From Apostichopus japonicus (Eukaryota; Echinodermata; Holothuroidea; Aspidochirotida; Stichopodidae): a stretch of 64,000 nucleotides of DNA. Under the pieces are notes generated by a model. It was not told the origin of the DNA. It searched no databases and was given only the letters and a program-made list of their open reading frames with translations. Of the stretch, positions 10,637 through 45,150 are shown in pieces. Position 1 is the stretch's first letter. Every line of letters starts with the position of its first letter. Where the stretch lies: positions 45,237,111-45,301,110 of the forward strand of contig NC_092576.1 in assembly GCF_037975245.1 (NCBI RefSeq), given 5' to 3'. Position numbers and translations under genes: made by a program.

Positions 10637-10720
10637 ATAAGTCATATCAACAAAGTCACAATCAGTCTCCACCACACAAACCGTACCAATGACGAAAGCA
10701 CCTTCCTGTTTGTAGTGAAT
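10637..10720 (-). CDS. atg101: ATG101 exon 3
   Basis: The sequence TTGTTCTTGCAG precedes 28 codons beginning IHYKQEGAFVIGTV and ending DCDFVDMTY, followed by a consensus GTAAGT donor. This corresponds to human ATG101 HYKKEGTYSIGTV...DCDFIDFTY, a beta-strand region of the HORMA domain. Phase is 0 at both ends; the other two frames contain stops. Joining exon 2 (TTGK) to exon 3 (IHYK) reproduces the family order without a gap, although the two exons are 21.2 kb apart. The conserved remainder of the protein, including the WF finger that recruits downstream factors, was not found on the minus strand between 1 and 10636. It presumably lies beyond the left edge, or has been lost or has diverged. 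Confidence 0.92.
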
Positions 10721-10756
10721 CTGCAAGAACAATTTAAAGGATATGTACGGATGTAA

Positions 10757-13700
10757 TATTTACAAAGTGTATAAATCAGTACAGGAAACATTGCTGTAAT
10801 ATGAGTACATGTACAGACATCTCACTACATGTCTACAGTACAGTAATACCAAGTTACACACAGAAATGGAGAATTGGAAGTGTTCCTGTACCTTTCCTGT
10901 GGTTCTGTATTATTTACAAAGTGTGTAACTCAGTACAGGCAACATTGCTGTAATATGAGTACATGTACAGACATCTCACTACACGTCTACAGTACAGTAA
11001 TACCAAGTTACACACAGAAATGGAAAATTGGAAGTGTTCCTGTACCTTTCCTGTGGTTCTGTATTATTTACAAAGTGTGTAACTCAGTACAGGAAACATT
11101 GCTGTAATATGAGTACGTGTACAGACATCTCACTACACGTCTACAGTACAATAATAACATGTTACACACAGAAATGGAAATTGGAAGTGTTCATGTACCT
11201 TTCCTGTGGTTCTGTATCATTTAAAAAGTGTGTAACTCAGTACAGGCAACATTGATGTAACATGAGTACATGTACAGACATCTCACTACACGTCTACGGT
11301 ACAGTAAGAACAAATTACACACAAAAATGGAAATTGGAAGTGTTCATGTACCTTTCCTGTGGTTCTGTGTTATTTACAAAGTGTGTAACTCAGTACAGGA
11401 AACATTGCTGTAATATGAGTACATGTACAGACATCTCACTACACGTCTACAGTACAGTAAGAACAAGTTACACACAGAAATGGAAATTGGAAGTGTTGAT
11501 GTACCATTCCTGTGGTTCTGTGTTATTTACAAAGTGTGTAACTCAGTACAGGCAACATTGCTGTAATATGAGTACATGTACAGACATCTCACTACACGTC
11601 TACAGTACAGTAATGACATGTTACACACAGAAATGGAAATTGGAAGTGTTCCTGTACCTTTCCTGTGGTTCTGTGTTATTTACAAAGTGTGTAACTCATT
11701 ACAGGAAACATTGCTGTAATATGAGTACATGTACAGACATCTCACTACACGTCTACAGTACAGTAAGAACAAGTTACACACAGAAATGGAAATTGGAAGT
11801 GTTGATGTACCATTCCTGTGGTTCTGTGTTATTTACAAAGTGTGTTACTAAGTACAGGCAACATTGCTGTAATATGAGTACATGTACAGACATCTCACTA
11901 CATGTCTACGGTACAGTAAGAACATGTTACTGTACACACAGAAATGGAAATTGGAAGTGTTCCTGTACCTCTCCTGTGGTTCTGTGTTATTTACAAAGTG
12001 TGTAACTCAGTACAGGAAACATTGCTGTAATATGAGTACATGTACAGACATCTCACTACATGTCTACAGTACAGTAATGACATGTTACACACAGAAATGG
12101 AAATTGGAAGTGTTCCTGTACCTTTCCTGTGGTTCTGTGTTATTTACAAAGTGTGTAACTCAGTACAGGAAACATTGCTGTAATATGAGTACGTGTACAG
12201 ACATCTCACTACACGTCTACAGTACAGTAATAACATGTTACACACAGAAATGGAAATTGGAAGTGTTCATGTACCTTTCCTGTGGTTCTGTATTATTTAA
12301 AAAGTGTGTAACTCAGTACAGGCAACATTGATGTAACATGAGTACATGTACAGACATCTCACTACACGTCTACGGTACAGTAAGAACAAGTTACACACAG
12401 AAATGGAAATTGGAAGTGTTCATGTACCTTTCCTGTGGTTCTGTGTTATTTACAAAGTGTGTAACTCAGTACAGGAAACATTGCTGTAATATGAGTACAT
12501 GTACAGACATCTCACTACACGTCTACAGTACAGTAAGAACAAGTTACACACAGAAATGGAAATTGGAAGTGTTGATGTACCATTCCTGTGGTTCTGTGTT
12601 ATTTACAAAGTGTGTAACTCAGTACAGGCAACATTGCTGTAATATGAGTACATGTACAGACATCTCACTACACGTCTACAGTACAGTAATGACATGTTAC
12701 ACACAGAAATGGAAATTGGAAGTGTTCCTGTACCTTTCCTGTGGTTCTGTGTTATTTACAAAGTGTGTAACTCATTACAGGAAACATTGCTGTAATATGA
12801 GTACATGTACAGACATCTCACTACACGTCTACAGTACAGTAAGAACAAGTTACACACAGAAATGGAAATTGGAAGTGTTGATGTACCATTCCTGTGGTTC
12901 TGTGTTATTTACAAAGTGTGTTACTAAGTACAGGCAACATTGCTGTAATATGAGTACATGTACAGACATCTCACTACATGTCTACGGTACAGTAAGAACA
13001 TGTAACTGTACACACAGAAATGGAAATTGGAAGTGTTCCTGTACCTCTCCTGTGGTTCTGTGTTATTTACAAAGTGTGTAACTCAGTACAGGAAACATTG
13101 CTGTAATATGAGTACATGTACAGACATCTCACTACACGTCTACAGTACAGTAATGACATGTTACACACAGAAATGGAAATTGGAAGTGTTCCTGTACCTT
13201 TCCTGTGGTTCTGTGTTATTTACAAAGTGTGTAACTCAGTACAGGAAACATTGCTGTAATATGAGTACATGTACAGACATCTCACTACACGTCTACAGTA
13301 CAGTAAGAACAAGTTACACACAGAAATGGAAATTGGAAGTGTTGATGTACCATTCCTGTGGTTCTGTGTTATTTACAAAGTGTGTTACTAAGTACAGGCA
13401 ACATTGCTGTAACATGAGTACATGTACAGACATCTCACTACATGTCTACGGTACAGTAAGAACATGTTACTGTACACACAGAAATGGAAATTGGAAGTGT
13501 TCCTGTACCTCTCCTGTGGTTCTGTGTTATTTACAAAGTGTGTAACTCAGTACAGGAAACATTGCTGTAATATGAGTACATGTACAGACATCTCACTACA
13601 TGTCTACAGTACAGTAATGACATGTTACACACAGAAATGGAAATTGGAAGTGTTCCTGTACCTTTCCTGTGGTTCTGTGTTATTTACAAAGTGTGTAACT

Positions 13701-16700
13701 CAGTACAGGAAACATTGCTGTAATATGAGTACGTGTACAGACATCTCACTACACGTCTACAGTACAGTAATAACATGTTACACACAGAAATGGAAATTGG
13801 AAGTGTTCATGTACCTTTCCTGTGGTTCTGTATTATTTAAAAAGTGTGTAACTCAGTACAGGCAACATTGATGTAACATGAGTACATGTACAGACATCTC
13901 ACTACACGTCTACGGTACAGTAAGAACAAGTTACACACAGAAATGGAAATTGGAAGTGTTCATGTACCTTTCCTGTGGTTCTGTGTTATTTACAAAGTGT
14001 GTAACTCAGTACAGGAAACATTGCTGTAATATGAGTACATGTACAGACATCTCACTACACGTCTACAGTACAGTAAGAACAAGTTACACACAGAAATGGA
14101 AATTGGAAGTGTTGATGTACCATTCCTGTGGTTCTGTGTTATTTACAAAGTGTGTAACTCAGTACAGGCAACATTGCTGTAATATGAGTACATGTACAGA
14201 CATCTCACTACACGTCTACAGTACAGTAATGACATGTTACACACAGAAATGGAAATTGGAAGTGTTCCTGTACCTTTCCTGTGGTTCTGTGTTATTTACA
14301 AAGTGTGTAACTCATTACAGGAAACATTGCTGTAATATGAGTACATGTACAGACATCTCACTACACGTCTACAGTACAGTAAGAACAAGTTACACACAGA
14401 AATGGAAATTGGAAGTGTTGATGTACCATTCCTGTGGTTCTGTGTTATTTACAAAGTGTGTTACTAAGTACAGGCAACATTGCTGTAATATGAGTACATG
14501 TACAGACATCTCACTACATGTCTACGGTACAGTAAGAACATGTAACTGTACACACAGAAATGGAAATTGGAAGTGTTCCTGTACCTCTCCTGTGGTTCTG
14601 TGTTATTTACAAAGTGTGTAACTCAGTACAGGAAACATTGCTGTAATATGAGTACATGTACAGACATCTCACTACACGTCTACAGTACAGTAATGACATG
14701 TTACACACAGAAATGGAAATTGGAAGTGTTCCTGTACCTTTCCTGTGGTTCTGTGTTATTTACAAAGTGTGTAACTCAGTACAGGAAACATTGCTGTAAT
14801 ATGAGTACATGTACAGACATCTCACTACACGTCTACAGTACAGTAAGAACAAGTTACACACAGAAATGGAAATTGGAAGTGTTGATGTACCATTCCTGTG
14901 GTTCTGTGTTATTTACAAAGTGTGTTACTAAGTACAGGCAACATTGCTGTAATATGAGTACATGTACAGACATCTCACTACATGTCTACGGTACAGTAAG
15001 AACATGTTACTGTACACACAGAAATGGAAATTGGAAGTGTTCCTGTACCTCTCCTGTGGTTCTGTGTTATTTACAAAGTGTGTAACTCAGTACAGGAAAC
15101 ATTGCTGTAATATGAGTACATGTACAGACATCTCACTACATGTCTACAGTACAGTAATGACATGTTACACACAGAAATGGAAATTGGAAGTGTTCCTGTA
15201 CCTTTCCTGTGGTTCTGTGTTATTTACAAAGTGTGTAACTCAGTACAGGAAACATTGCTGTAATATGAGTACGTGTACAGACATCTCACTACACGTCTAC
15301 AGTACAGTAATAACATGTTACACACAGAAATGGAAATTGGAAGTGTTCATGTACCTTTCCTGTGGTTCTGTATTATTTAAAAAGTGTGTAACTCAGTACA
15401 GGCAACATTGATGTAACATGAGTACATGTACAGACATCTCACTACACGTCTACGGTACAGTAAGAACAAGTTACACACAGAAATGGAAATTGGAAGTGTT
15501 CATGTACCTTTCCTGTGGTTCTGTGTTATTTACAAAGTGTGTAACTCAGTACAGGAAACATTGCTGTAATATGAGTACATGTACAGACATCTCACTACAC
15601 GTCTACAGTACAGTAAGAACAAGTTACACACAGAAATGGAAATTGGAAGTGTTGATGTACCATTCCTGTGGTTCTGTGTTATTTACAAAGTGTGTAACTC
15701 AGTACAGGCAACATTGCTGTAATATGAGTACATGTACAGACATCTCACTACACGTCTACAGTACAGTAATGACATGTTACACACAGAAATGGAAATTGGA
15801 AGTGTTCCTGTACCTTTCCTGTGGTTCTGTGTTATTTACAAAGTGTGTAACTCATTACAGGAAACATTGCTGTAATATGAGTACATGTACAGACATCTCA
15901 CTACACGTCTACAGTACAGTAAGAACAAGTTACACACAGAAATGGAAATTGGAAGTGTTCAATGTACCATTCCTGTGGTTCTGTGTTATTTACAAAGTGT
16001 GTTACTAAGTACAGGCAACATTGCTGTAATATGAGTACATGTACAGACATCTCACTACATGTCTACGGTACAGTAAGAACATGTAACTGTACACACAGAA
16101 ATGGAAATTGGAAGTGTTCCTGTACCTCTCCTGTGGTTCTGTGTTATTTACAAAGTGTGTAACTCAGTACAGGAAACATTGCTGTAATATGAGTACATGT
16201 ACAGACATCTCACTACATGTCTACAGTACAGTAATGACATGTTACACACAGAAATGGAAATTGGAAGTGTTCCTGTACCTTTCCTGTGGTTCTGTGTTAT
16301 TTACAAAGTGTGTAACTCAGTACAGGAAACATTGCTGTAATATGAGTACATGTACAGACATCTCACTACACGTCTACAGTACAGTAAGAACAAGTTACAC
16401 ACAGAAATGGAAATTGGAAGTGTTGATGTACCTTTCCTGTGGTTCTGTGTTATTTACAAAGTGTGTAACTCAGTACACGCAACATTGCTGTAATATGAGT
16501 ACATGTACAGACATCTCACTACACGTCTACAGTACAGTTATGACATGTTACACACAGAAATGGAAATTGGAAGTGTTCCTGTACCTTTCCTGTGGTTCTG
16601 TGTTATTTACAAAGTGTGTAACTCAGTACAGGAAACATTGCTGTAATATGAGTACATGTACAGACATCTCACTACACGTCTACAGTACAGTAAGAACAAG

Positions 16701-17869
16701 TTACACACAGAAATGGAAATTGGAAGTGTTGATGTACCATTCCTGTGGTTCTGTGTTATTTACAAAGTGTGTAACTCAGTACAGGCAACATTGCTGTAAT
16801 ATGAGTACATGTACAGACATCTCACTACATGTCTACAGTACAGTAAGAACATGTTACTGTACACACAGAAATGGAAATTGGAAGTGTTCCTGTACCTCTC
16901 CTGTGGTTCTGTGTTATTTACAAAGTGTGTACTGTAACTCAGTACAGGAAACATTGCTGTAATATGAGTACATGTACAGACATCTCACTACGGGTCTACA
17001 GTACAGTAATGACATGTTACACACAGAAATGGAAATTGGAAGTGTTCCTGTACCTTTCCTGTGGTTCTGTGTTATTTACAAAGTGTGTAACTCATTACAG
17101 GAAACATTGCTGTAATATGAGTACATGTACAGACATCTCACTACACGTCTACAGTACAGTAAGAACAAGTTACACACAGAAATGGAAATTGGAAGTGTTG
17201 ATGTACCATTCCTGTGGTTCTGTGTTATTTACAAAGTGTGTTACTAAGTACAGGCAACATTGCTGTAATATGAGTACATGTACAGACATCTCACTACATG
17301 TCTACGGTACAGTAAGAACATGTTACTGTACACACAGAAATGGAAATTGGAAGTGTTCCTGTACCTCTCCTGTGGTTCTGTGTTATTTACAAAGTGTGTA
17401 ACTCAGTACAGGAAACATTGCTGTAATATGAGTACATGTACAGACATCTCACTACATGTCTACAGTACAGTAATGACATGTTACACACAGAAATGGAAAT
17501 TGGAAGTGTTCCTGTACCTTTCCTGTGGTTCTGTGTTATTTACAAAGTGTGTAACTCAGTACAGGAAACATTGCTGTAATATGAGTACGTGTACAGACAT
17601 CTCACTACACGTCTACAGTACAGTAATAACATGTTACACACAGAAATGGAAATTGGAAGTGTTCATGTACCTTTCCTGTGGTTCTGTATTATTTAAAAAG
17701 TGTGTAACTCAGTACAGGCAACATTGATGTAACATGAGTACATGTACAGACATCTCACTACACGTCTACGGTACAGTAAGAACAAGTTACACACAGAAAT
17801 GGAAATTGGAAGTGTTCATGTACCTTTCCTGTGGTTCTGTGTTATTTACAAAGTGTGTAACTCAGTACA
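10757..17869. repeat. ATG101-intron satellite, first array (about 46 monomers of ~153 bp)
   Basis: Head-to-tail monomers of 153 bp, with some of 158 bp carrying an extra TGTAC. On the gene's sense (minus) strand each begins CACAGAACCACAGGAAAG, the last 18 nt of ATG101 exon 2, followed by GT. Monomer subtypes recur in a fixed order, giving higher-order units of 1540 bp (starts near 12338, 13878, 15418). Because 153 is divisible by 3, the plus strand shows open frames up to 284 codons with a 51-residue repeating peptide (MSTCTDISLH...). I regard these as arithmetic artefacts. The array is cut at 17869 by element A. Confidence 0.95.
12338..15417. repeat. Two adjacent 1540-bp higher-order repeat units
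   Basis: Units 12338-13877 and 13878-15417 each contain ten monomers, eight of 153 bp and two of 158 bp (10 x 153 + 2 x 5 = 1540). They are almost the same; one C/T difference was seen (13413 versus 14953). A third unit starts at 15418 but diverges after a 1-bp insertion near 15960. This implies recent unequal exchange or amplification of ten-monomer blocks. Confidence 0.85.
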
Positions 17870-20800
17870 GGGCAGGTCCAAGCTATTTGCACTGTGACGT
17901 ACGGGACATTTCAGAGACTTAAATGTGTCTAAAAGTTATAAAAAATCTATTTTCCAGAAACTTTTTCAGGTTTTCATATTTGTTATTGCTGCTACTTTAT
18001 TACAAACTTATGAAGATTTCCTACACTTGCTTTAATTAGGTCCCATCTTAATTAATGTACAGTGTGACGTACGGGACCAGAGAATTTTGTGTTTTTTTTG
18101 CTAAAGAGCAAAGCTGAAATCGCTCTGAAATTAGGAGGGCAGTGATCAAGCTGTTATAACTAGTGAATAGCCTAACCTTCCAAGAGCTAAGCTGTAACAT
18201 ATTAGAAAAAAATATGAAGCCATTCCAGTTCAGTGATTACACAAATGAAAATTGTCCTGTGACGTACGGGACATGTGACGTACGGGACAATTTGTCCAAA
18301 TAAAAATTGACTATGAAAACTCATATTTTTATTCCTGAATATACCATAACAAGCTGATTTCTACATAAAAACATTAATTTGGATATGTCAGAACAATGTC
18401 ATTGGTAATTTCATGCCATATTTCCTTCTTTCGGGGATCGAAAAGAGCAGTGACTGTACTTGTGAGATCATTCCACTACATAAAACATGGAATGTGTAAA
18501 GTATACTGTAAATCTACTCTACACATTCATCAAATACTCATAACATCAATTCTAGCTTTGTTAGACAACAAATCATCCAAGATGCAAAGTTTTGGTGCAA
18601 AACTGTCTCGGTATATACTGTACAACACTGTATCATACTCCCCACTATTGACCCTGAAGTTGAAATATGATCCATCCCATTCAAAACATACCAAAATGTC
18701 CACAGTAACATCCACATAATGTCCATCTATGAAACTAGTACAACAAAGAAAACTCTATAGACCTAATAATGGTTACCAGACCAAATGCTCATAACATCAA
18801 TTCTAGCTTTGTTAGACCACAAATGATTCAAGATGCAAGTTTTGGTGCAAAACTGTTTCCGTTGTATACTGTACAGCACTGTATCATACTCCCCACTATT
18901 GACCCTGAAGTTGAAATATGATCCATCATATTCTACCAAAATGTCCACAGTAACGTCCACATAATGTCCATCTATGAAACTAGTACAACAAAGAAAACTC
19001 TATAGACCTGATACTGGTTACCAGACCAAATACTCATAACATCAATTCTAGCTTTGTTAGACCACAAATGATTCAAGATGCAAGTTTTGGTGCAAAACTG
19101 TTTCCGTTGTATACTGTACAGCACTGTATCATACTCCCCACTATTGACCCTGAAGTTGAAATATGATCCATCATATTCTACCAAAATGTCCACAGTAATG
19201 TCCACATAATGTCCATCTATGAAACTAGTACAACAAAGAAAACTATAGACCTAATACTGGTTACCAGACCAAATACTCATAACATCAATTCTAGCTTTGT
19301 TAGACCACAAATGATTCAAGATGAAAAGTTTTGGTGCAAAACTGTTTTGGTATATACTGTACAACACTGTATCATACTCCCCACTATTGACCCTGAAGTT
19401 GAAATATGATCCATCCCATTCAAAACATATCAAAATGTCCACAGTAACGTCCACATAATGTCCATCTATGAAACTAGTACAACAAAGAAAACTATAGACC
19501 TAATACTGGTTACCAGACCAAATAGTCATAACATCAATTCTAGCTTTGTTAGACCACAAATGATTCAAGATGCAAAGTTTTGGTGCAAAACTGTTTTGGT
19601 ATATACTGTACAACACTGTATCATACTCCCCACTATTGACCCTGAAGTTGAAATATGATCCATCCCATTCAAAACATATCAAAATGTCCACAGTAACGTC
19701 CACATAATGTCCATCTATGAAACTAGTACAACAAAGAAAACTCTATAGACGTGATACTGGTTACAAGACCAAATAGTCATAACATCAATTCTAGCTTTGT
19801 TAGACCACAAATGATTCAAGATGCAAAGTTTTGGTGCAAAACTGTTTTGGTATATACTGTACAACACTGTATCATACTCCCCACTATTGACCCTCAAGTT
19901 GAAATATGATCCATCCCATTCAAAACATATCAAAATGTCCACAGTGACGTCCACATAATGTCCATCTATGAAACTAGTACAACAAAGGAAACTCTATAGA
20001 CCTGATACTGGTTACCAGACCAAATAGTCATAACATCAATTCTAGCTTTGTTAGACCACAAATGATTCAAGATGCAAAGTTTTGGTGCAAAACTGTTTCC
20101 GGTATATACTGTACTACACTGTATCATATTCCCCACTATTAAACCCTCATGTTGAAATATGATCCATCCCATTCAAAACATATCAAAATGTCCACACTAC
20201 AGTAACGTCAATGTAATGTCCATCTATGAAACTAGTACAACAAAGAAAACTCTATAGATCTAATACTGATTATTGAACAAACTCATGAGTGTTTGTCCTC
20301 TGCAAAAATTGGGCGAGCAAAACTCTACACTTGTAACTAAAAATCTCAATGTCTACTATCTAAGTCTGGACACAAGAACATTGTTGCACAGTCATGATAG
20401 TCACACTTCACAATAGGCCTACGAAATGTGGAAATGCAAACTCAACATTCTTGAAGTTGTTCTCATTCAATGTCAATGTTGAATAGCATTGTAGATGATT
20501 CTGTATCCCACACACACACACAATTGACTTCCCGATAGTATATTGAACAACACCTGGGCTGTTGGTGGTCATCAGTCAATGGTTTATTTGAAGCCATGTT
20601 GTGCTCTTCAGGCATGCAGGGATTATAAGTTGCAACTACCATCTTTCAACAAAATAGATTTGCAAGCATTGAAAGGTTTCCAGTAGAGGTCCCCATTGGA
20701 GCCCATGCATGTTTATTATGTATAAATACAGGGTTTCCCCCACACTATGTCCCGTACGTCACATTTTGTCCCGTACGTCACATTTTTAATTTTGATAATT

Positions 20801-21294
20801 AGATTTGCTGTGAATATTTTTTCAATTTTTTGGGGATGGATTTTGTTGAACAATGTTCTTAATTAGAACTTTACAGAATATCACCAAAAAAAAATTGATC
20901 TTCCATATCAAAACTTGAAAAAAAGTGCTGAAAATTGTGACGTACGGGACATCAGTATTTGGACACTAGCTAATTAGCATATTTAATTGATGAACCCCCA
21001 AACATCATATGTTAAAATTATTGGAAGGAAGGGTGTATCATGTCCCACATAACTAATATTCAATAAGTTCATATTGCTGGCAGGGAAATAGGATTCCAAA
21101 TGTCCCGTACGTCACGCTGCAATTTGAATTTATGCAAATTAGCCGGCTGTAATTGTTCGAATAGGCAAAACAATTAAAAAAAATTATGAAAATCTGAAAC
21201 TTCAATAATTCAGCTTTAACATGACACCACATTTAGGGAGCTTCAGTAAAGTTTGAAATTTGGCTTCTAGGGATACAATAGCTTGGACCTGCCC
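17870..21294. mobile_element. DNA transposon A, 3425 bp, TIR GGGCAGGTCCAAGCTATT, TSD TACA
   Basis: Perfect 18-bp terminal inverted repeats (GGGCAGGTCCAAGCTATT and its reverse complement) are flanked by TACA at 17866-17869 and 21295-21298. Removing the element and one TACA restores a normal satellite monomer (CAGTACAGGAAAC). Both ends carry the motif TGTGACGTACGGGACA: left copies at 17893, 18063, 18258 and 18274; right copies at 20748 and 20767 (inverted), 20936 (direct) and 21101 (inverted). The centre is a tandem array of ~250-bp units. No long open frame is present, so the copy is probably non-autonomous. I do not assign a superfamily: 4-bp duplications with GGG termini do not by themselves identify one. 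Confidence 0.93.
18520..20280. repeat. Tandem repeat of ~243-251-bp units inside element A (7 copies)
   Basis: The phrase TAACATCAATTCTAGCTTTG recurs with minor changes at 18541, 18792, 19037, 19280, 19529, 19780 and 20031, spaced 243-251 bp. Each unit contains a minus-strand open stretch of about 60-80 codons with the phrase DGSYFNFRVNSGEYDTVLYS. The period is not a multiple of three and the frames do not connect. I do not recognise the peptide; it may be a fossil of transposase or chance openness. Confidence 0.9.
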
Positions 21295-21355
21295 TACAGG
21301 AAACATTGCTGTAATATGAGTACATGTACAGACATCTCACTACACGTCTACAGTA
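21295..21355. repeat. Satellite remnant between elements A and B
   Basis: Sixty-one bases of monomer sequence (TACAGGAAACATTGCTG... to ...CGTCTACAGTA) lie between the right TIR of A and the left TIR of B. They include the duplicated target sites of both, TACA and AGTA. The two transposons are therefore independent insertions into one monomer, 57 bp apart. Confidence 0.95.
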
Positions 21356-22274
21356 GGGTCAGATCCAAAACCTCTGCCAATGTTATGGACGGAATTCACA
21401 GAGATAAAGTCCCATCAAAAATAGTGTGAGAGTTAGTATTTGGTAAGGTATGCATGATTGATCCAAGTTGGGATACCTCTACCATATAACGGAAAAAAAT
21501 TAATTGGGTAGTGCAATATTAGTCTGAATATGCAAATTAGGTGTTCGTTATGGACGGAATCAGAAAAATGATCGATATCCACCAACCTTCATAGTGGGTC
21601 AAAACTCTGTGAAGTGTTCAGGATTTCAAAGTATCAGGTACTTTTCATCACAGGCCTGGTACCTTAGCTTTATCATACTCCCACTCATAATCTTCAATGT
21701 ACCTCTATTAACCCACTACCCCAAACCAAAATTCTGTGTTATGGACGGAATGTACAACGTTATGGACGGAAGGTTTTGTCCTGATTTAGGATCAACTCTT
21801 GAATTGTGAAGTGTGTGTTATAAGTTAATACTTATGGCCAATATGTGTAATAATATCGAATAAAATTGAATTTATTATAAGAAGGGAAAGAGCTAGTCCT
21901 GAAATAGGAATTGTTATGGATGGAATGTTATGGACGGAAAGTATTGAATTAGCCTGAAATGAATTGCTACAGCACATGAAAAGTTTCACTCTTGCTGAAG
22001 GTACTCATCAGGTGGCTTTCAGCACTATAAGCAGAGGCTGTCAGTACTTTTCCCATTTGTTTTTTTCACTTTTGTGGCTTCACCTCCTTCAAACAATGCC
22101 AATGCAATCAAAGTTTCACCAGTCTGCAAAGCTTGTATGAAAGAAAACAACACATGCAAATAAAACTGTGGACATGGGAGGCCTGTATGGTTGAACAGTC
22201 ATGAAAATTTGAAATAGACTTTTCAATCTCAACAAAATACATCGATTCATATTTGTCAAAATTTTTCGTCACCA

Positions 22275-22640
22275 TCACGGCTCACAATCTCTTTGAAACT
22301 TGTCCCTAATATATTCAACCACCTTTGTTGCAATTCCCACTTTGCTACTTGAAATTAGGAGGACAGGCTGTTCTAGTTTCCCCATGATCATTCCTAGTGG
22401 GATATTTGTCTCAGGTGATGGCCAGAAGAAAGTATTGGTAGGGCCCTTAGGGTGTAGGAAGGAGACATAGACATCATTACTGTCAACTGATATTTGGTCC
22501 ACGTTTTCCAACCACCAGTCTCCTTCATACACAAAAACCACGTTGCATAAGGATGACAACTTGGATTTATAAGGGTCATTCCGTGTCAAATCAAGAATGG
22601 CTGTTGCTGCACCCTCTCCAAAAATTCCCAAATTTTTTGT
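22275..22640 (-). pseudogene. Coding remnant in element B (C-terminal beta-rich module of a transposon protein?)
   Basis: A minus-strand frame of about 120 codons ends at a stop near 22275 and contains YEGDWWLENVDQISVD, VYVSFLHPKGPTNTFFWPS and IPLGMIMGKLEQP. Alternating hydrophobic residues around conserved W, G and P positions suggest a small SH3/Tudor-like beta barrel. From general familiarity, such tails occur in uncharacterised transposon-associated proteins of marine invertebrates. There is no ATG in a good position: the frame opens after a TGA upstream, and an adjacent frame at 22586-22780 may hold an earlier, frameshifted part. A catalytic domain was not seen. The frame could be the last exon of a transposase or a decayed copy. 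Confidence 0.45.
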
Positions 22641-24150
22641 ATGATTGGACCATCATGAAATAAGCATATTCTGAAAATTTCAGTTGCATTGCTTTCCAGC
22701 CGATTTATCACACTTTGAAATTCCGCAATTTGTCGCCACCATGGCATTTTCTTGACTTTTGAGGTCTCATTTCTCAGCAATTAACCATTCTACTACCTTT
22801 CTATTACAGATGCCTATAGAGTCTATCCCATAGAATAGGAAAATAAAAAATTAGGCTACAAAAATATTGTCTTGTGGAGTTAGGTCCACTTAAAAGTGTC
22901 AAAATATACAATTTTTGTACTTTTCACTAAAAAATGTGCTATTTTTAGTGATGAATTGCTCCTAAACCATTGCTTCAGGGTACTTGATTCTTTCAGAGGT
23001 TATTATGTCTGGTACAATCATTACAAAATAATGATTACAATGCTTTCCTATGATATGTTTGCAAGTTGTGCAACTCTAAAGTTGCTATTTCATGCTGCGA
23101 TTCAGCATGAGGTAGGAGTTTTGATGCCAATTTTTTACCAAAGTAACCATGTTAGAGCTGTCAGGGTTTTATACTTCAACTATAAGTATAAAGTTCTTAC
23201 CCCTAAACAAATTTCAGGGTTCTAGCTGTTCTCAATAATAATTTAAGAAGTTGTTAAGCTGCTCCGATGTACAAAAGAGGTCATCTTTGACGGCCAACAC
23301 CTCAAAATGCGTAATGTTGAAAAAATCTGATAATTTTTTCTGGAAGAGATATAGTACCACCCTGTTTGTACAAACAATTTCAGGAGGGTGTTTTGCCTTA
23401 TTTTGAAATGAAAAATCCTCAAAGTTTGGGATTTTTACAGAAATTTCTTCTTTTCTTTTTTTTTTTAAATTAGGGAAAACATCACCTGAAAGCCTAGAAA
23501 AATACTGTAATGTACATGTAAAAAAAGGTTTTCCATCCTAAATAACATTCATTCACATTTGATTGCTTTGATTTAACTTAATAAAAAACATTCTGCATAG
23601 TTTTTCCAAAGAAAGTAATTTCAATCAATAACATACACATTCCGTCCATAACGTTTTCCTAATTCCATCCATAACACAAATGTTTCATTGAACCCCAGCT
23701 TATCAATATGCAGGAATCTGGTAATTTTTCACTTCATCCTTAATGGCATTGATAACCTTCAGAAGATTACATGCAAATTTTATCACTGAAGTGAACTTTA
23801 AAATTGCCAGGAGATTAATGACATCAGGTAGCGTTATGGACGGAATTAATGATTTTCTTCTCGATTAGCATCTTAATTAGGGATGCCCTACTTAATTTTT
23901 TCAAAAACTATTTTGGAGAGATCAGTACCATAAACAATTATTCAGGTGCAGATTCCTGTGAATTCCATCATTCCTTGCAGTTCAGTGGCACAAATTGCTG
24001 TTTCCGTCCATAACGCTGGTTTAAGTGCATTGTTGATATAATTAAGCAGTACTCGTTAACAAAGAAACATACAAATTTAATTTTTTGGCCAAGCAAGCTT
24101 AAATTGTTCTTCTTTTGGACAAAACTATCAAAATTGGTAACTATGATCAT

Positions 24151-26324
24151 GGGCAATTCCATGGTAACGGAAGGACATTGGGACTAATTTTCTGACATTT
24201 GAACAAGTATATCATGAATATCCCCATTAATTACAACAAATAATTGTCATCATTGACTAGCTATAACTACATACTTCAATTTCCACATATTTTTTTTTAC
24301 ACAAACCCTTCCCATTTTTGAAATATGAATATTAATGAGGTCGGTAACGGAAGGACAGCAAACGGACAAGGGTTTTCACACGTCTTGAGTTTATTGTAAA
24401 ACTCTGTGAATTCTATGGAGTAATCTTATTTTAGAGGTGAGAAATGTTATCCCAATACTGTTTCCTATACTGTACCACTTTCAATTCTGAAATTGTTGCT
24501 TTGGTTTTCTAGAAATATAGTGCTAATTAAAGTTAAATTTGGTAACGGAAGGACGGTAACGGAAGGAAAATATGTCCACTCAGTTACAAAGAAGAGTATA
24601 TCACATGTTGACACAATAATAAAATTGTCAGAACCAACATTCCAATGTGAACTATAACAATGTATTGACCATCCAAAGCAAAAATATGGAAGTTATTTCT
24701 AATTATCAACTAACCACATTATGTTAATTAACTGTATGTCAATAACTGAAAAAGCAAAACTGAAAAAGTTGAAGCAACTATCACTATATTCAACTGAATT
24801 TATTCTAAAATGATAATCAACTGAAGCTAAAGTCCTACTACTTAAGGAATAATCACCTGCTAATTAATGGGAAGTGATTGTATCTGAAAGTACAAACAAA
24901 TTATAACGTTAATTAACGGTATCAATACCTGAATTTTGAAAAAGTGAATCCGAAAAAGTCGAGGCAACTACAGTGTATTAATATACTCAACAAAATTTAA
25001 TCTAAAATATTAGTCAACTGAAGCTGAAATCCTACTACTTTTGGAATAATTAATGAGAAGTAATTACTGTATATCTAAAGGAACAAACAATCACACAATC
25101 TTCATGCATAAGCATGCAACGTTACTCAGTGATACTGTACTCTGGACAACCTAATTCCCCTCTGGGATAGCGTCACTGAAAATGTATCTCTCCCTGTTGT
25201 CCATGAATGGTGACGGTAGCAGCTTCACAATTTGATCCTCCGTGACCACTCCATATTTGTCTGTGAGATCCCTTGCAACAAACACTTTGCCTTCCTTATC
25301 ACCCTTGTGGAGATGGGTCCCACACACTTCATTTTCATGAACTTCTGTGACAAGTGCTACAAACTTGTATGATTTGATGACTTCATTTCCCCCCACATGT
25401 TCTACAAGAATGAAGTCCCCACACTGTGTTGGTCATTGAACTGTAGGGGATTCAGGGGCACTACAAAGCTTGGACCCCATCAGTCTATGTGAAGAAGTGG
25501 ATAAACTGTGGCAAGTTGAACGCTAAACTGTACACATTTAGCATTGAGACATGAAATGAATTGTTGGCTGCCCTAGTCCAGACAGTCAACAATAGAGTAT
25601 ACAATCACACCGCCTTAGTAGATATAAACATCATTCTCAGAGTCAACAACTCCCACAGGATGCTGTATACAATATATATGTATGCATGCAATGATATTTA
25701 CTTTTAATCATAGGCAAATGACTCAATTATCTGACTGGAAAAAAAAATTGTCCTTCCGTTACTGTCCTTCCGTTACCAAAATGGTAACGGAAAGACAGGT
25801 TTTAATCAATCATAATGAACAAACGAAGAGGACCAGGGTGAAACTAATTATTTCATTTTGTTGGCCAATCTAAACTTGCTTTGAAGATGAACTTTCATTT
25901 TAATCATGCTGCAACTTTTCCTGAAAAACTAAAAAAAGTTATATTTTCGGTAACGGAAGGACATTTCAAATGGCAAAAATACCGAAGGCCACTGAAGCGG
26001 AACCAATGAAGAAAAGGGGCAAAAATATTATCCATTCAGTTTTCCATTATCTATACTCTGACATGGTAGTGGCTGATATCATTTATATACTTGCTATCAA
26101 TTAGCAGTGACGAAATAGTTTTTACTACCAATCATCCAATTTTCTGTATCAACTGATGAATATTCAATTACCCATATATTTTCATTCCAAAATGCATGAA
26201 AATTGCATTTCTGAACCTGATTCTGGAAAATATGGACTCTTAGCTTTCATTTGACACCAAATTTACTATTGTCACACACTTTTAATTTTTTGGGTATCAT
26301 GTCCACTTTCTCATGGAATTGCCC
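24151..26324. mobile_element. DNA transposon C, 2174 bp, nested in B, TIR GGGCAATTCCATG, TSD TCAT
   Basis: TIRs GGGCAATTCCATG / CATGGAATTGCCC are flanked by TCAT at 24147-24150 and 26325-26328. The motif GGTAACGGAAGGACA occurs about eight times: 24163 (directly after the TIR), 24343, 24541, 24555; 25749 and 25763 (inverted); 25783 and 25949 (direct). It inserted close to the right end of B, so it is younger than B. A short minus-strand coding remnant lies at 25151-25429. Confidence 0.92.
25151..25429 (-). pseudogene. Coding remnant in element C (GDFILV module)
   Basis: The minus-strand frame reads QCGDFILVEHVGGNEVIKSY, then FVALVTEVHENEVCG and IVKLLPSPFMDNRERYIF, ending at a stop near 25151. 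The pattern GDF-hydrophobic-V, a central V/A-V-x-E-V strand and a closing I-V-x-L-L-P-x-P is the same kind of C-terminal module seen in element B. A stop codon (TGA) lies a few codons upstream in frame, so this is either a terminal exon with an acceptor just upstream (CCCCTACAG) or a decayed remnant. No catalytic residues are visible. The function is inferred only from its position inside a transposon. Confidence 0.45.
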
Positions 26325-26370
26325 TCATCTAAATTTTAGCCCTGAGGTTGACAGGTTTTGGATCTGACCC

Positions 26371-29300
26371 AGTACAGTAAGAACAAGTTACACACAGAAA
26401 TGGAAATTGGAAGTGTTGATGTACCATTCCTGTGGTTCTGTGTTATTTACAAAGTGTGTAACTCAGTACAGGCAACATTGCTGTAATATGAGTACATGTA
26501 CAGACATCTCACTACACGTCTACAGTACAGTAATGACATGTTACACACAGAAATGGAAATTGGAAGTGTTCCTGTACCTTTCCTGTGGTTCTGTGTTATT
26601 TACAAAGTGTGTAACTCATTACAGGCAACATTGCTGTAATATGAGTACATGTACAGACATCTCACTACACGTCTACAGTACAGTAAGAACAAGTTACACA
26701 CAGAAATGGAAATTGGAAGTGTTGATGTACCATTCCTGTGGTTCTGTGTTATTTACAAAGTGTGTTACTAAGTACAGGCAACATTGCTGTAATATGAGTA
26801 CATGTACAGACATCTCACTACATGTCTACGGTACAGTAAGAACATGTAACTGTACACACAGAAATGGAAATTGGAAGTGTTGATGTACCTCTCCTGTGGT
26901 TCTGTGTTATTTACAAAGTGTGTAACTCAGTACAGGAAACATTGCTGTAATATGAGTACATGTACAGACATCTCACTACACGTCTACAGTACAGTAATGA
27001 CATGTTACACACAGAAATGGAAATTGGAAGTGTTCCTGTACCTTTCCTGTGGTTCTGTGTTATTTACAAAGTGTGTAACTCAGTACAGGAAACATTGCTG
27101 TAATATGAGTACATGTACAGACATCTCACTACACGTCTACAGTACAGTAAGAACAAGTTACACACAGAAATGGAAATTGGAAGTGTTGATGTACCATTCC
27201 TGTGGTTCTGTGTTATTTACAAAGTGTGTTACTAAGTACAGGCAACATTGCTGTAATATGAGTACATGTACAGACATCTCACTACATGTCTACGGTACAG
27301 TAAGAACATGTTACTGTACACACAGAAATGGAAATTGGAAGTGTTCCTGTACCTCTCCTGTGGTTCTGTGTTATTTACAAAGTGTGTAACTCAGTACAGG
27401 AAACATTGCTGTAATATGAGTACATGTACAGACATCTCACTACATGTCTACAGTACAGTAATGACATGTTACACACAGAAATGGAAATTGGAAGTGTTCC
27501 TGTACCTTTCCTGTGGTTCTGTGTTATTTACAAAGTGTGTAACTCAGTACAGGAAACATTGCTGTAATATGAGTACGTGTACAGACATCTCACTACACGT
27601 CTACAGTACAGTAATAACATGTTACACACAGAAATGGAAATTGGAAGTGTTCATGTACCTTTCCTGTGGTTCTGTATTATTTAAAAAGTGTGTAACTCAG
27701 TACAGGCAACATTGATGTAACATGAGTACATGTACAGACATCTCACTACACGTCTACGGTACAGTAAGAACAAGTTACACACAGAAATGGAAATTGGAAG
27801 TGTTCATGTACCTTTCCTGTGGTTCTGTGTTATTTACAAAGTGTGTAACTCAGTACAGGAAACATTGCTGTAATATGAGTACATGTACAGACATCTCACT
27901 ACACGTCTACAGTACAGTAAGAACAAGTTACACACAGAAATGGAAATTGGAAGTGTTGATGTACCATTCCTGTGGTTCTGTGTTATTTACAAAGTGTGTA
28001 ACTCAGTACAGGCAACATTGCTGTAATATGAGTACATGTACAGACATCTCACTACACGTCTACAGTACAGTTATGACATGTTACACACAGAAATGGAAAT
28101 TGGAAGTGTTCCTGTACCTTTCCTGTGGTTCTGTGTTATTTACAAAGTGTGTAACTCAGTACAGGAAACATTGCTGTAATATGAGTACATGTACAGACAT
28201 CTCACTACACGTCTACAGTACAGTAAGAACAAGTTACACACAGAAATGGAAATTGGAAGTGTTGATGTACCATTCCTGTGGTTCTGTGTTATTTACAAAG
28301 TGTGTTACTAAGTACAGGCAACATTGCTGTAATATGAGTACATGTACAGACATCTCACTACATGTCTACGGTACAGTAAGAACATGTTACTGTACACACA
28401 GAAATGGAAATTGGAAGTGTTCCTGTACCTCTCCTGTGGTTCTGTGTTATTTACAAAGTGTGTAACTCAGTACAGGAAACATTGCTGTAATATGAGTACA
28501 TGTACAGACATCTCACTACATGTCTACAGTACAGTAATGACATGTTACACACAGAAATGGAAATTGGAAGTGTTCCTGTACCTTTCCTGTGGTTCTGTGT
28601 TATTTACAAAGTGTGTAACTCAGTACAGGAAACATTGCTGTAATATGAGTACGTGTACAGACATCTCACTACACGTCTACAGTACAGTAATAACATGTTA
28701 CACACAGAAATGGAAATTGGAAGTGTTCATGTACCTTTCCTGTGGTTCTGTATTATTTAAAAAGTGTGTAACTCAGTACAGGCAACATTGATGTAACATG
28801 AGTACATGTACAGACATCTCACTACACGTCTACGGTACAGTAAGAACAAGTTACACACAGAAATGGAAATTGGAAGTGTTCATGTACCTTTCCTGTGGTT
28901 CTGTGTTATTTACAAAGTGTGTAACTCAGTACAGGAAACATTGCTGTAATATGAGTACATGTACAGACATCTCACTACACGTCTACAGTACAGTAAGAAC
29001 AAGTTACACACAGAAATGGAAATTGGAAGTGTTGATGTACCATTCCTGTGGTTCTGTGTTATTTACAAAGTGTGTAACTCAGTACAGGCAACATTGCTGT
29101 AATATGAGTACATGTACAGACATCTCACTACACGTCTACAGTACAGTTATGACATGTTACACACAGAAATGGAAATTGGAAGTGTTCCTGTACCTTTCCT
29201 GTGGTTCTGTGTTATTTACAAAGTGTGTAACTCAGTACAGGAAACATTGCTGTAATATGAGTACATGTACAGACATCTCACTACACGTCTACAGTACAGT

Positions 29301-29421
29301 AAGAACAAGTTACACACAGAAATGGAAATTGGAAGTGTTGATGTACTGTACCATTCCTGTGGTTCTGTGTTATTTACAAAGTGTGTAACTCAGTACAGGC
29401 AACATTGCTGTAATATGAGTA
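26371..29421. repeat. ATG101-intron satellite, second array (about 20 monomers)
   Basis: The same 153-bp monomer in the same orientation resumes after element B with AGTACAGTAAGAAC, completing the monomer interrupted at 21355. A seven-monomer higher-order unit of 1076 bp (7 x 153 + 5) is visible from 27722 to 28797 and repeats from 28798. Subtypes are the same as in the first array, so the block structure probably predates the A and B insertions. It is interrupted at 29421 by element D. Confidence 0.95.
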
Positions 29422-30618
29422 TAGTAAGACGGGGTAAAAAAAAAACGTTTCCTTAAAGTTTAACATAAAACTCGTTAGGTAGATGCTTAGGTAGATATTT
29501 TAGCATTGTCAGTTGACAAGTGGGAATACCTTCCTAAATAGCCATAATAAAAATTTCAATCACAATGAGTAAAGGAGAAATTCCAGAAAAGGGGTGGTTT
29601 TTTTTTACCCCGGCTGTTTGTCATTTTTGGGGTAAAAAAAAACCCTGCTGGGGTAAAAAAAGTCCACACTGTTAAAACAACATACTACCAAAGAAAATGT
29701 GCAAAACCACCAGAAATATTTTCAGCACACTTTAGAAAAGCTTTATTTGGGCATTTTCAATCAAGTTCTGCATGAATTAACCTATTGCCAAACGATAAAC
29801 TCCGGGAAACAAACCCCACCTTCCGAGACTAAGCAAGATTCTATCAAGACTGTTTAATACCCCCTAAAACATAATTGACCATGTTTTATGAGTTTTATTC
29901 TATATATTAGTATCACATCCAGCTGTGGGGTTGGGACTTAGGGTAGAGAATAATTTAGGACTCTAAAAATAACAAGATAACCATATACAGCAGACATATA
30001 TTGTGTTAGGCTATAACACTAGGCTAACATAGAAATAACTTAGGTTAAGAACAGGCAACAGTTAGTTATAAAAAGGTAAATTATTATAATGGTAGAAATT
30101 AGAGGAGCATAGATGTACTCCCTGTGTCAATCATATAGCAATTCTAACATTCTGTGATAAATATAAACCATTTTGGGAGGAAATTAGGACTGGTCTTTTT
30201 TTACCCCAAACGGACACTAAACCCTGGGGTAAAAAAAAATCACGTCATTCGAGAAAACTGGCAGATCGTGCGGGTAATTACATTACTGATTCATGTAGGT
30301 ACGCCTCTTGTTATCATAACCAAGAAACAAAAACCTCTATATCAGTTCTAATATTTTTGCAGGATAAAGTTAAAGGACAGTGTTCAGAACTTAAATATTT
30401 GCTATTTTTAGAGTATGGGAAAAGTCGGCGCTAAAAGTATCGGTACGCCGATGGAAAAGAATAGTAACAATCAATAAAGTATGTCAGAATTGACTTGGGC
30501 ACCATGGTTTTCAAAAACACCATACAAAAATGTGCTTCTATTTCTCACGACTTGTAGTTGGGGGGTGGTTTTTTTTTACCCCAACTACCCTGTGGTTTTT
30601 TTTTACCCCGTCTTACTA
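29422..30618. mobile_element. DNA transposon D, 1197 bp, TIR TAGTAAGACGGGGTAAAAAA, TSD TA
   Basis: TIRs of at least 20 bp (TAGTAAGACGGGGTAAAAAA and its reverse complement) are flanked by TA at 29420-29421 and 30619-30620. Removing the element restores GAGTACATG of the monomer. The motif GGGGTAAAAAAA occurs about eight times: at both tips and near 29597, 29630, 29650, 30190, 30222 and 30570, in both orientations. No coding capacity was seen. The TA duplication is typical of Tc1/mariner-like and some other superfamilies. Assignment is open. Confidence 0.88.
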
Positions 30619-31958
30619 TACATGTACAGACATCTCACTACATGTCTACAGTACAGTAAGAACATGTTACTGTACACACAGAAATGGAAATTGGAAGTGT
30701 TCCTGTACCTCTCCTGTGGTTCTGTGTTATTTACAAAGTGTGTACTGTAACTCAGTACAGGAAACATTGCTGTAATATGAGTACATGTACAGACATCTCA
30801 CTACGGGTCTACAGTACAGTAATGACATGTTACACACAGAAATGGAAATTGGAAGTGTTCCTGTACCTTTCCTGTGGTTCTGTGTTATTTACAAAGTGTG
30901 TAACTCAGTACAGGAAACATTGCTGTAATATGAGTACATGTACAGACATCTCACTACACGTCTACAGTACAGTAAGAACAAGTTACACACAGAAATGGAA
31001 AATTGGAAGTGTTCCTGTACCTTTCCTGTGTTTCTGTGTTATTTACAAAGTTTGTAACTCAGTACAGGCAACATTGCTGTAATATGAGTACATGTACAGA
31101 CATCTCACTACGCGTCTACAGTACAGTAAGAACAAGTTACACACAGAAATGGAAATTGGAAGTGTTCATGTACCTTTCCTGTGGTTCTGTGTTATTTACA
31201 AAGTGTGTAACTCAGTACACGCAACATTGCTGTAATATGAGTACATGTACAGACATCTCACTACGCGTCTACAGTACAGTAAGAACAAGTTACACACAGA
31301 AATGGAATTTGGAAGTGTTCCTGTACCTTTCCTGTGGTTCTGTGTTATTTACAAAGTGTGTAACTCAGTACAGGCAACATTGCTGTAATATGAGTACATG
31401 TACAGACATCTCACTACACGTCTACAGTACAGTAAGAACAAGTTACACACAGAAATGGAAATTGGAAGTGTTCATGTACCTTTCCTGTGGTTCTGTGTTA
31501 TTTACAAAGTGTGTAACTCAGTACACGCAACATTGCTGTAATATGAGTACGTGTACAGACATCTCACTACACGTCTACAGTACAGTAAGAACAAGTTACA
31601 CACAGAAATGGAATTTGGAAGTGTTCCTGTACCTTTCCTGTGGTTCTGTGTTATTTACAAAGTGTGTAACTCAGTACAGGCAACATTGCTGTAATATGAG
31701 TACATGTACAGACATCTCACTACACATCTACAGTACAGCAAGAACAAGTTACACACAGAAATGGATAATTGGAAAGTGTTCCTGTACCTTTCCTGTGGTT
31801 CTGTGTTATTTACAAAGTGTGTAACTCAGTACAGGAAACATTGCTGTAACATGAGTACATGTACAGACACTTCACTACATGCATACAGTACAGTAATAAC
31901 ATGTTACACACAGAAATGGAAATTGGAAGTGTTCCTGTACCTTTCCTGTGGTTCTGTG
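30619..31958. repeat. ATG101-intron satellite, third array, ending inside exon 2
   Basis: About nine monomers lie between element D and ATG101 exon 2. They show more sequence variety than the central blocks (for example CGCGTCTAC, TACACGCAAC and GGAATTTGGAAG variants), as expected at an array edge. The final monomer stops within exon 2: bases 31941-31958 are at once satellite and coding sequence. This is the only monomer boundary that runs into non-satellite coding DNA. Confidence 0.92.
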
Positions 31959-32018
31959 GAAAAGTATGGTATGAAATATGCTGTTGACAACCTCCTCTAG
32001 CTGCTTGCTCTCAACAGT
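31941..32018 (-). CDS. atg101: ATG101 exon 2
   Basis: A polypyrimidine tract ending in CAG precedes 26 codons starting TVESKQLEEV and ending IFHTILFHRTTGK, then AAG followed by GTACAG as 5' splice site. The peptide aligns closely with human ATG101 residues of the form SVEGRQVEEA...LHTVLLHRSTGK, the first helix of the HORMA fold. Both ends are phase 0, consistent with exons 1 and 3. The last 18 nt (31941-31958) and the donor are shared with every monomer of the satellite that fills the following intron. The true exon is recognised because only here does the sequence continue upstream into the conserved coding region. If the intron were retained, translation would continue a few dozen codons into satellite DNA and stop. 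Confidence 0.92.
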
Positions 32019-33130: not shown

Positions 33131-33160
33131 TAGTTCAAAGACTTGAGATCTGGCATTCAT
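33131..33160 (-). CDS. atg101: ATG101 exon 1 (coding part)
   Basis: Thirty coding bases from an ATG in acceptable context (A at -3) read MNARSQVFEL, followed directly by a GTAAGAG 5' splice site in phase 0. This matches the N-terminus of ATG101 as remembered from insects and resembles the human MNCRSEVLEV. ATG101 is a HORMA-domain protein that binds and stabilises ATG13 in the ULK1 kinase complex, which starts autophagosome formation in the cytosol. The next exon, 1.1 kb downstream on the same strand, continues the family in phase 0. The start is chosen because it is the conserved family start. The tiny exon has no weight alone; the call rests on the three exons together. I see no clear promoter element, and the transcription start is not determined. 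Confidence 0.85.
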
Positions 33161-33997
33161 CCTTCTATTAAGTTTTCTTCTCAACTACTCGCCATGTAAG
33201 TCTAAGTTAGCTGTGCTGCAATACAATAGTGCAAATATAAAATACTTGCAGACATAAACATGGTAGAACACATCTAGGAATTATATAACAGTACATCAAA
33301 ACCGGGTTCTCAAAGAAGATAATCCATCTATAACATATAATATATCTAGAGTCATCAAACCAGTGCCCTACAGCTTACCCTATGGGTCATTATGATCATA
33401 TAGACCTATACCCTACACATCTATACTAAAAACACCCTTCTACTTCTCATAAAGATACAGGTACATATATATTGTCATCCCACCAGTGGCCTACATCATA
33501 CCTTGTGAGCCATTATGATCCTTTACACATCTATACTAAACAAAACAATACACTTCTACTGTACTTCTCATAAAGATACAAGCTGATGAGAAAGCCAGCC
33601 ATATTACAGTGCAGTATATACGTGTACATTAATTTCTTTTGAAGCCTTTCTCCCAACCACTTTCTCCCATTATGAGAGCTGAACACATCTGCAGTATACA
33701 CATTAATCAATCGCAAAGTATAAATATTCTAGTTCTAGCACGGGATAGGCCTATCCTGTAACTGTGCTAGACCTAACTTAGGCCAACCAATATTTGACAT
33801 TTGATTTTGAATGTTTCTACTTGGACCTGAAACGGTAGACTTCCTTACTATAAACACTAGCCAAGTGTCAACTTAACTTAACGCTACAGATGCTATGCTA
33901 ATTCAGCCTGTTTTTTCGTACTGTAAATGCACTACCCGTTACCGTTACTCTTGTGCGAAGCGTAGCTGCTCGCTGAACTAGTATCTGTACACAGCCT
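33161..33997. other. ATG101 upstream region and 5' leader
   Basis: Upstream of the start codon in gene sense. A very short upstream frame (ATG GCG AGT AGT TGA) lies about 33 nt before the start codon, if that segment is in the mRNA. No clear TATA box. Promoter position undetermined. Confidence 0.4.
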
Positions 33998-45113: not shown

Positions 45114-45132
45114 GCTCAACAGAAAACAGAAT

Positions 45133-45149: not shown

Positions 45150-45150
45150 A

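What the first reader, a model, noticed from the sequence alone, without database searches (positions are those of the whole stretch)
10721..32018. A satellite born from an exon-intron boundary: ATG101 intron 2 amplified in place with its 5' splice site
Seen: the 153-bp monomer on the ATG101 sense strand starts with CACAGAACCACAGGAAAG followed by GTACAG, exactly the last 18 nt of exon 2 plus the donor. It then continues to TTTGTAAATA, 36 nt short of the exon 3 acceptor. The array fills the intron between these points, with about 75 copies in the same orientation. Inference: the ancestral intron was about 170 nt, and a block of 18 nt exon plus 135 nt intron was tandemly amplified. Every monomer therefore carries an exon-end/5' splice site copy, giving dozens of decoy donors downstream of the real one in a conserved autophagy gene. 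How the transcript is spliced correctly is an open question. I know of no described satellite with this origin.
Basis: partly seen in the sequence, partly recalled or inferred. Interest (0 to 1): 0.88.

Follow-up and report, generated by a model that had tools for sequence, protein, structure and literature searches.

The report
Intron array carrying repeated splice sites
In what looks like a sea cucumber, the second intron of an autophagy gene (ATG101) has multiplied in place together with the last 18 letters of the exon before it, so that one gene copy carries its own splice signal 75 times, apparently since before the gene itself was copied to many places.

Summary
Observation confirmed. 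Intron 2 of an ATG101 copy (window 10721-31940, minus strand) holds 75 head-to-tail 153-bp units (73 intact, 2 split by transposon-like insertions). Each begins with the last 18 nt of exon 2 and its donor; GT is kept in 73 of 73 intact units. In-place origin is well supported: 92 of 92 matches of an array query lie at 17 places on one contig, and 17 of 17 have ATG101 exon 2 and/or 3 beside the array. One copy has a 171-nt, one-unit intron. All ten copies with both exons keep a GT 170-172 nt before the exon-3 acceptor. The gene context needs correction: this is Apostichopus japonicus by protein match; the window copy lacks exons 5-8. Of five longer copies, one was seen whole, with 16 units. Reading on into intron 2 meets a stop within 33-138 nt in 14 of 15 copies, so downstream donors would truncate the protein. 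Three NCBI models join exon 2 to exon 3; one skips exon 2, although that copy has the strongest donor. Best reading: exon definition selects the first donor. No RNA was examined.

The parts
33131..33160 (-). ATG101 exon 1 (MNARSQVFEL), donor GTAAGA
   Evidence: tblastn, blastn
31941..32018 (-). ATG101 exon 2 (TVESKQLEEVVNSIFHTILFHRTTGK), acceptor TTTCAG, donor AAG|GTACAG; its last 18 nt are the start of the first repeat unit
10721..31940 (-). Intron 2, 21,220 nt, GTACAG...TTGCAG
30619..31958 (-). Array block 1: 8 intact units and the first part of unit 9 (its first 18 nt are exon 2)
29422..30618 (.). Insertion of 1,197 bp, 23-bp perfect terminal inverted repeats (TAGTAAGACGGGG...), TA target duplication; splits unit 9
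26371..29421 (-). Array block 2: rest of unit 9, 19 intact units, start of unit 29
21356..26370 (.). Insertion of 5,015 bp, 18-bp perfect inverted ends (GGGTCAGATCC...), TACT target duplication; in unit 29
21295..21355 (-). Middle piece (61 bp) of unit 29 between two insertions
17870..21294 (.). Insertion of 3,425 bp, 18-bp perfect inverted ends (GGGCAGGTCCAAGC...), TGTA target duplication; in the same unit; contains a 251-bp x7 tandem repeat
10757..17869 (-). Array block 3: end of unit 29 and 46 intact units, with recurring blocks of 10 units
10721..10756 (-). 36-nt tail of intron 2 with the exon-3 acceptor (TTGCAG); with the last unit's donor it makes a complete 171-nt intron
10637..10720 (-). 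ATG101 exon 3 (IHYKQEGAFVIGTVCVVETDCDFVDMTY)
9750..9857 (-). ATG101 exon 4 (VRCNSPTLDKNLRREVSAFKDALRSTDVNAGLQSGQ), donor GTGGGT; no exon 5-8 found in the window
8979..9029 (-). Stretch encoding INHTSVDKSSSGDNLHL, the C-terminal end of the NCBI model P0176; it is preceded by AG in L023 and L024 but by AA here

Best explanation
A short (about 170 nt) intron 2 of ATG101, in an ancestor of the Apostichopus japonicus copies, suffered a tandem duplication running from 18 nt inside exon 2 to 36 nt before the exon-3 acceptor. Unequal exchange then made an array whose length changes freely (1 to 75 units among the copies seen). The gene with its array was afterwards duplicated to at least 17 places on one contig, most copies losing exons. 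Because the unit carries the exon end and donor but not the acceptor, the array multiplies 5' splice sites only; the first donor gives the right mRNA, and the last one re-creates a complete 171-nt intron. Proposed working: once intron 2 is long, exon 2 is recognised across the exon (its one acceptor pairs with the nearest donor), so the first donor wins; downstream donors would add stop-containing sequence, and such transcripts would be removed. SHOWN here: anatomy, shared junction, donor retention, stops, copy-number range, protein models. INFERRED: order of events, exon definition, decay of mis-spliced RNA. A link between the array and skipping of exon 2 is a guess with evidence against it.
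For: Origin: the unit's first 18 nt equal the end of exon 2, a conserved coding block, so the exon is the source. 92 of 92 array matches fall at 17 places on C16, and 17 of 17 have ATG101 exon 2 and/or 3 beside the array. The same unit-to-unit junction (TAAATAA|CACAG) is seen in diverged copies including the 31.2-Mb copy. L024 has a 171-nt, one-unit intron. Splicing: GT kept in 178 of 182 full units, 73 of 73 in the window and 15 of 16 in the copy seen whole. From the last unit's GT to the acceptor is 170-172 nt in 10 of 10 copies with both exons, nine arrays and L024. In-frame stop 33-138 nt after the true donor in 14 of 15 copies, exon 2 itself being broken in the fifteenth. The nine arrays have introns of 634 nt or more and intron 1 of the window copy is 1,112 nt, so exon 2 lies between long introns. 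The only copy seen whole, 36.95 Mb, has 16 units, and no complete copy without an array was found. NCBI models of A. japonicus join exon 2 to exon 3 at the true end: P0176, 100% identical to the window's exons 1-4, P0178 (matches L024) and P0126. In human minigenes two identical donors between long introns gave exclusive use of the upstream one; when both were weakened, small and medium exons kept the upstream site (PMC9225289, abstract and section 8).
Against: No RNA read was examined; protein models are predictions. Exon definition in sea cucumbers is assumed from human data. Decoys are neither purged nor consistently weaker than the true donor, so there is no sign of selection on splicing. 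Skipping: one NCBI model (P0123) joins exon 1 to exon 3, but it matches the 37.21-Mb copy, whose exon-2 donor is the strongest (-10.0 kcal/mol), and the usual exon-2 donor (-5.6) is no weaker than those of exons 1, 3 and 6 of the same gene (-4.5, -4.9, -5.6); a weak donor is therefore a poor explanation of skipping. No DNA of another holothurian could be searched, so the single-unit state in relatives is unproved. First-unit and last-unit kinship across copies was too weak to order events. Tree support for the place of L024 is moderate.
Confidence: 0.7

Rival explanations
1. Bystander: the array is an ordinary intronic tandem repeat, largely in dead gene copies; decoy donors have no effect and splicing is never troubled.
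For: The window copy lacks exons 5-8; four of the five copies with exons 5-8 show a defect or an exon not seen in what was fetched. Decoys show no sign of selection.
Against: The one copy seen whole has 16 units, and no array-free complete copy was found, so whichever copy works has to splice across an array.
Confidence: 0.42
2. Intron definition: the last donor, which with the acceptor makes a 171-nt intron, is used, so exon 2 is extended by the upstream units and most array-bearing transcripts are wasted; array length would set ATG101 output.
For: All 10 copies with both exons keep GT 170-172 nt from the acceptor; human sites in short introns pair across the intron (PMC9225289 abstract).
Against: Reading on into intron 2 meets a stop in 14 of 15 copies; NCBI models P0176, P0178 and P0126 use the exon-2 end; a complete protein must come from some copy.
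Confidence: 0.12
3. A pre-existing satellite or transposon repeat inserted into intron 2 and came to match the exon end by conversion or chance.
For: Three other elements have inserted in this intron.
Against: The 18 nt are conserved coding sequence; no monomer was found away from ATG101 (92 of 92 matches; all rows shown of the 196 matches, the rest not listed); one unit plus 36 nt is a full intron.
Confidence: 0.03
4. Assembly artefact: exons and array wrongly joined or copies falsely duplicated.
For: Tandem arrays are hard to assemble; array length was not checked against reads.
Against: 17 places with different flanks and unit numbers; insertions with clean target duplications inside the array; NCBI proteins from a contig of another length (46,042,199 against 46,036,110) match the window, 37.21-Mb and L024 copies.
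Confidence: 0.04

Closest known systems
Human IFI6 (6-16, G1P3) minisatellite providing multiple splice donors (Turri, Cuin and Porter 1995; paper not held; seen as a cited title and one sentence in PMC4526556, and as a reference in PMC2572611)
   Same: Tandem units that are themselves 5' splice sites; by that sentence two downstream units are used as donors.
   Different: The unit there is 12 bp at an exon-2 border (both recalled) against 153 bp; here the unit is an intron minus its acceptor plus an exon end, reaches 75 units, and is present in 17 gene copies.
Intronic minisatellites, e.g. the myoglobin-intron probes of DNA fingerprinting (one passage of PMC3909909)
   Same: Tandem repeats inside an intron.
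   Different: Cores and units of about 16 to 37 bp in that passage, with no splice site mentioned.
Intron gain by tandem duplication of an exon with an AG/GY proto-splice site (passages of PMC2891723)
   Same: Tandem duplication spanning a splice motif changes splice-site choice.
   Different: There a new intron is made; here an existing intron is multiplied without its acceptor.
Tandem dual-specific splice sites of polyubiquitin UBC (abstract of PMC10809524)
   Same: AGGT at every repeat boundary.
   Different: UBC units are coding and the sites act as donor and acceptor; here the 20 nt before the AG have 30% pyrimidine, so they are unlikely acceptors.
Proximity rules of 5' splice-site choice (PMC9225289: abstract, section 8 and passages)
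   Same: Identical competing donors; the upstream one chosen under exon definition.
   Different: Two designed sites in a minigene against up to 75 natural ones.

Membership tests
ATG101 gene family (PF07855) | ATG101 domain | tested here: met
   Window exons 1-4: PF07855, 75.9 bits, cut-off 26.5
ATG101 gene family (PF07855) | Complete protein (exons 1-8, about 220 aa) | tested here: not met
   No exon 5-8 found in the window; profile positions 1-73 of 158 only
Classical satellite DNA | High-copy arrays at many loci, not tied to one gene | tested here: not met
   182 full units at 17 places, all ATG101 copies; that search scores only best candidates
Intronic minisatellite / VNTR | Head-to-tail units whose number varies between copies | tested here: met
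   1 to 73 intact units per place; one orientation checked in the window
Intronic minisatellite / VNTR | Number varies between individuals | not testable with these tools
   One genome only
IFI6-type splice-donor repeat | Repeat unit contains the 5' splice site of the exon it abuts | tested here: met
IFI6-type splice-donor repeat | More than one repeat donor used in mRNA | not testable with these tools
   No RNA data; the NCBI models seen use the exon-2 end or skip exon 2
Dual-specific (AGGT) splice-site array | Sites also have the pyrimidine tract of a 3' splice site | tested here: not met
   Pyrimidine fraction 0.30 before the AG against 0.70 at the true acceptor; use itself not tested
Intron gain by tandem duplication | New intron created from exon sequence | tested here: not met
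   A complete 171-nt intron exists as a single unit in L024

The most novel reading that the evidence does not exclude
The ATG101 copies form a natural titration of splice-site competition: 1 to 75 near-identical donors against one acceptor, the first donor favoured by exon definition and the last by intron definition. Array length would then set the share of correct, exon-2-skipped and stop-containing mRNA, so that array expansion and contraction tune or silence ATG101 copies in the sea cucumber.
Probability: 0.15. Interest if true: 0.82.

Novelty: new variant of a known kind. Interest (0 to 1): 0.6.

Why it matters
The birth of a long tandem repeat can here be traced to a named exon-intron boundary, with a one-unit intron, arrays of intermediate length and a 75-unit array in one genome. 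It also sets the two proximity rules of splice-site choice against each other in natural genes: the first donor is right for the protein, the last donor keeps the short intron. RNA-seq of the animal should be able to settle which wins, copy by copy.

Tried and rejected
Pre-existing satellite or transposon origin: rejected, no monomer found away from ATG101 (all 92 rows, the rows shown of 196). Reading the window gene as the functional ATG101: rejected, exons 5-8 not found. L024 as the surviving ancestral intron: judged less likely than contraction from trees and the DMTY residue; not excluded, since the trees are unrooted and support is moderate. Positional kinship of first and last units across eight copies: differences of about 1%, inconclusive. 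Microhomology at the duplication junction: no clean overlap, an imperfect TACA/CACA only (read; the T variant is confined to the window, L022 and L023). Units as dual-specific sites: poor pyrimidine tract. Weak donor as the cause of exon-2 skipping: not borne out, see evidence against. Automatic test for inverted ends of the 5-kb insertion found none with the first borders; with borders read from the flanks it has 18-bp perfect ends. Rfam at gathering thresholds: no match in the window. Paper searches: in what was listed (one listed nothing; two showed 20 of 57 and 10 of 232) no title or abstract opening told of a long repeat born from an exon-intron boundary, and one paper held both ATG101 and this species (listing only). 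The library lacks most subscription journals.
Full report
WHAT IS THERE. On the minus strand of the window lies a copy of ATG101. Exon 1 is at 33160-33131, exon 2 at 32018-31941, exon 3 at 10720-10637 and exon 4 at 9857-9750. Exon 2 ends CACAGAACCACAGGAAAG, the codons of HRTTGK, and is followed by GTACAG. Intron 2 is 21,220 nt. A profile of the repeat gives 78 hits in the gene's direction and none in the other. Of these, 73 are full units; the other five are pieces of two units, one broken by an insertion of 1,197 bp, the other by two insertions of 5,015 and 3,425 bp. Each insertion has perfect inverted ends (23, 18 and 18 bp) and a target duplication (TA, TACT, TGTA). That gives 75 units: 11,547 nt of the intron are array, 9,637 nt insertions and 36 nt the tail, so the array does not fill the intron. 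The 73 units have a mean pairwise identity of 0.9455 and only 30 different sequences; units ten apart in block 3 (0.972) and seven apart in block 2 (0.983) are most alike, so I infer recent growth in blocks.

WHERE IT COMES FROM. The animal is, by protein match, the sea cucumber Apostichopus japonicus: an NCBI protein of that species (P0176) is 100% identical over the 100 residues of the window's exons 1-4, and others match sister copies. A 461-base stretch of the array has 92 matches in the genome, all listed, all at 17 places on this contig: 31.25 Mb, twelve between 36.2 and 37.2 Mb, and four between 45.25 and 45.70 Mb counting the window. I fetched the 16 others. All 17 carry ATG101 exon 2 and/or exon 3 in the stretch held: ten both, five exon 2 only, two exon 3 only (in L014 exon 2 is partly replaced). 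A second search with the 171-nt single-unit intron gave 196 matches; every row shown is on the same contig, and some were not listed. These searches score only their best candidates, so distant relatives of the unit could be missed.

The 17 places hold 182 full units: 73 in the window, then 17, 16, 11, 9, 9, 7, 7, 7, 6, 5, 5, 4, 3, 1, 1 and 1. L024 at 45.70 Mb has an exon 2, a 171-nt intron of one unit plus tail, and exon 3; the other 16 places show at least part of a second unit. L024 need not be the ancestor: in trees of the flanks it falls with the window, L022 and (3' side) L023, with support 86/95 and 93/95, below the program's mark of 95/80, and it shares DMTY in exon 3 with the window and L022, where eight of the 36-37 Mb copies and two unnamed, related transcripts (P0121, P0122) have DLTY. 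I favour contraction, but the trees are unrooted. Unit-to-unit junctions read TAAATAA|CACAG in copies as distant as L021, so I infer that the duplication came before the copies spread.

THE GENE COPIES. Five copies have exons 5-8. With what was fetched, one of the five, at 36.95 Mb, has all eight exons open with AG and GT at the borders (with a one-base shift at the exon 5/6 border); its intron 2 is 2,481 nt with 16 units. In the others I saw a lost acceptor and a frameshift (36.42), a broken exon 2 (36.67), ACG for the start and no exon 4 in the stretch held (36.80), and a codon deletion with exon 1 outside the stretch held (37.21). No complete copy without an array was found by the search with human ATG101. 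Four truncated copies (L009, L011, L016, L019) all end at position 63 of a unit.

WHAT IT MEANS FOR SPLICING. GT at the donor is kept in 73 of 73 window units and 178 of 182 overall, and in 15 of 16 in the copy seen whole. Estimated pairing with U1 is -5.6 kcal/mol for the true donor and -4.1 to -5.7 for the three commonest other window types; the perfect site gives -11.6, and other donors of this gene -4.5 to -10.9. In all ten copies with both exons a GT lies 170-172 nt before the acceptor, so the 3' end of each of these arrays is a complete short intron. Reading exon 2 onward meets an in-frame stop 33-138 nt past the donor in 14 of 15 copies; in the fifteenth exon 2 is itself broken. So only the first donor gives an open product. 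In human data equal donors are chosen by proximity: across the intron when introns are short, across the exon when they are long; in minigenes with 365-nt introns the upstream of two equal donors was used exclusively, and with both weakened small and medium exons kept it while larger exons were skipped (PMC9225289: abstract, section 8, passages). Exon 2 is 78 nt, intron 1 is 1,112 nt and the nine array-bearing introns measured are 634 nt or more. The array thus sets the two rules against each other, and I favour the first donor by exon definition.

NCBI models fit but do not prove this: P0176, P0178 and P0126 join exon 2 to exon 3 at the true end. P0123 joins exon 1 to exon 3, an in-frame loss of 78 nt. 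I first thought of skipping as the price of a weak, repeated donor; but P0123 matches the 37.21-Mb copy, the one copy of 15 with a strong donor (GTAAGG, -10.0), so that link is not supported. The base pair before the last exon of P0176 is AG in L023 and L024 but AA in the window, so the window allele may not make that product.

KNOWN KINDS. Intronic minisatellites are old knowledge. The nearest relative in working is the human IFI6 repeat that provides several splice donors; I saw its title and one sentence in a later paper. Nine paper searches were answered; none of what they listed told of a long repeat born from an exon end plus intron. I class it as a new variant of a known kind.

Noticed in passing
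P0123 (NCBI, A. japonicus), 37.21-Mb copy: A protein model joins exon 1 to exon 3, skipping exon 2 in frame; whether this is real is open.
   Followed up: partly
L020 3171-3176 (37.21-Mb copy): The true donor reads GTAAGG, one base shorter than GTACAGG and much stronger for U1 than its decoys; the only such copy of 15.
   Followed up: partly
L009, L011, L016, L019: Four copies break off at the same position (63) of a unit and go on into similar flanks, as if a truncated copy was itself duplicated.
   Followed up: partly
L017 438-1248; window about 33342-33580: A second tandem repeat (115 bp, 7 copies in L017) lies upstream of exon 1 in sister copies; the window has about two copies.
   Followed up: no
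window 17870-26370: Two different inverted-end elements inserted in the same 153-bp unit; one carries a 251-bp x7 tandem repeat (18531-20272).
   Followed up: partly
window 38739-45167 (-): Long ORFs (697 and 1299 aa) that look like gag and pol of an LTR retrotransposon; observed only.
   Followed up: no
window 53236-54384: Tandem repeat of 47 bp, about 25 copies, 76% matches.
   Followed up: no
window 9030-9033 (-): CTAA where sister copies L023 and L024 have an AG before the last exon of the NCBI model.
   Followed up: partly
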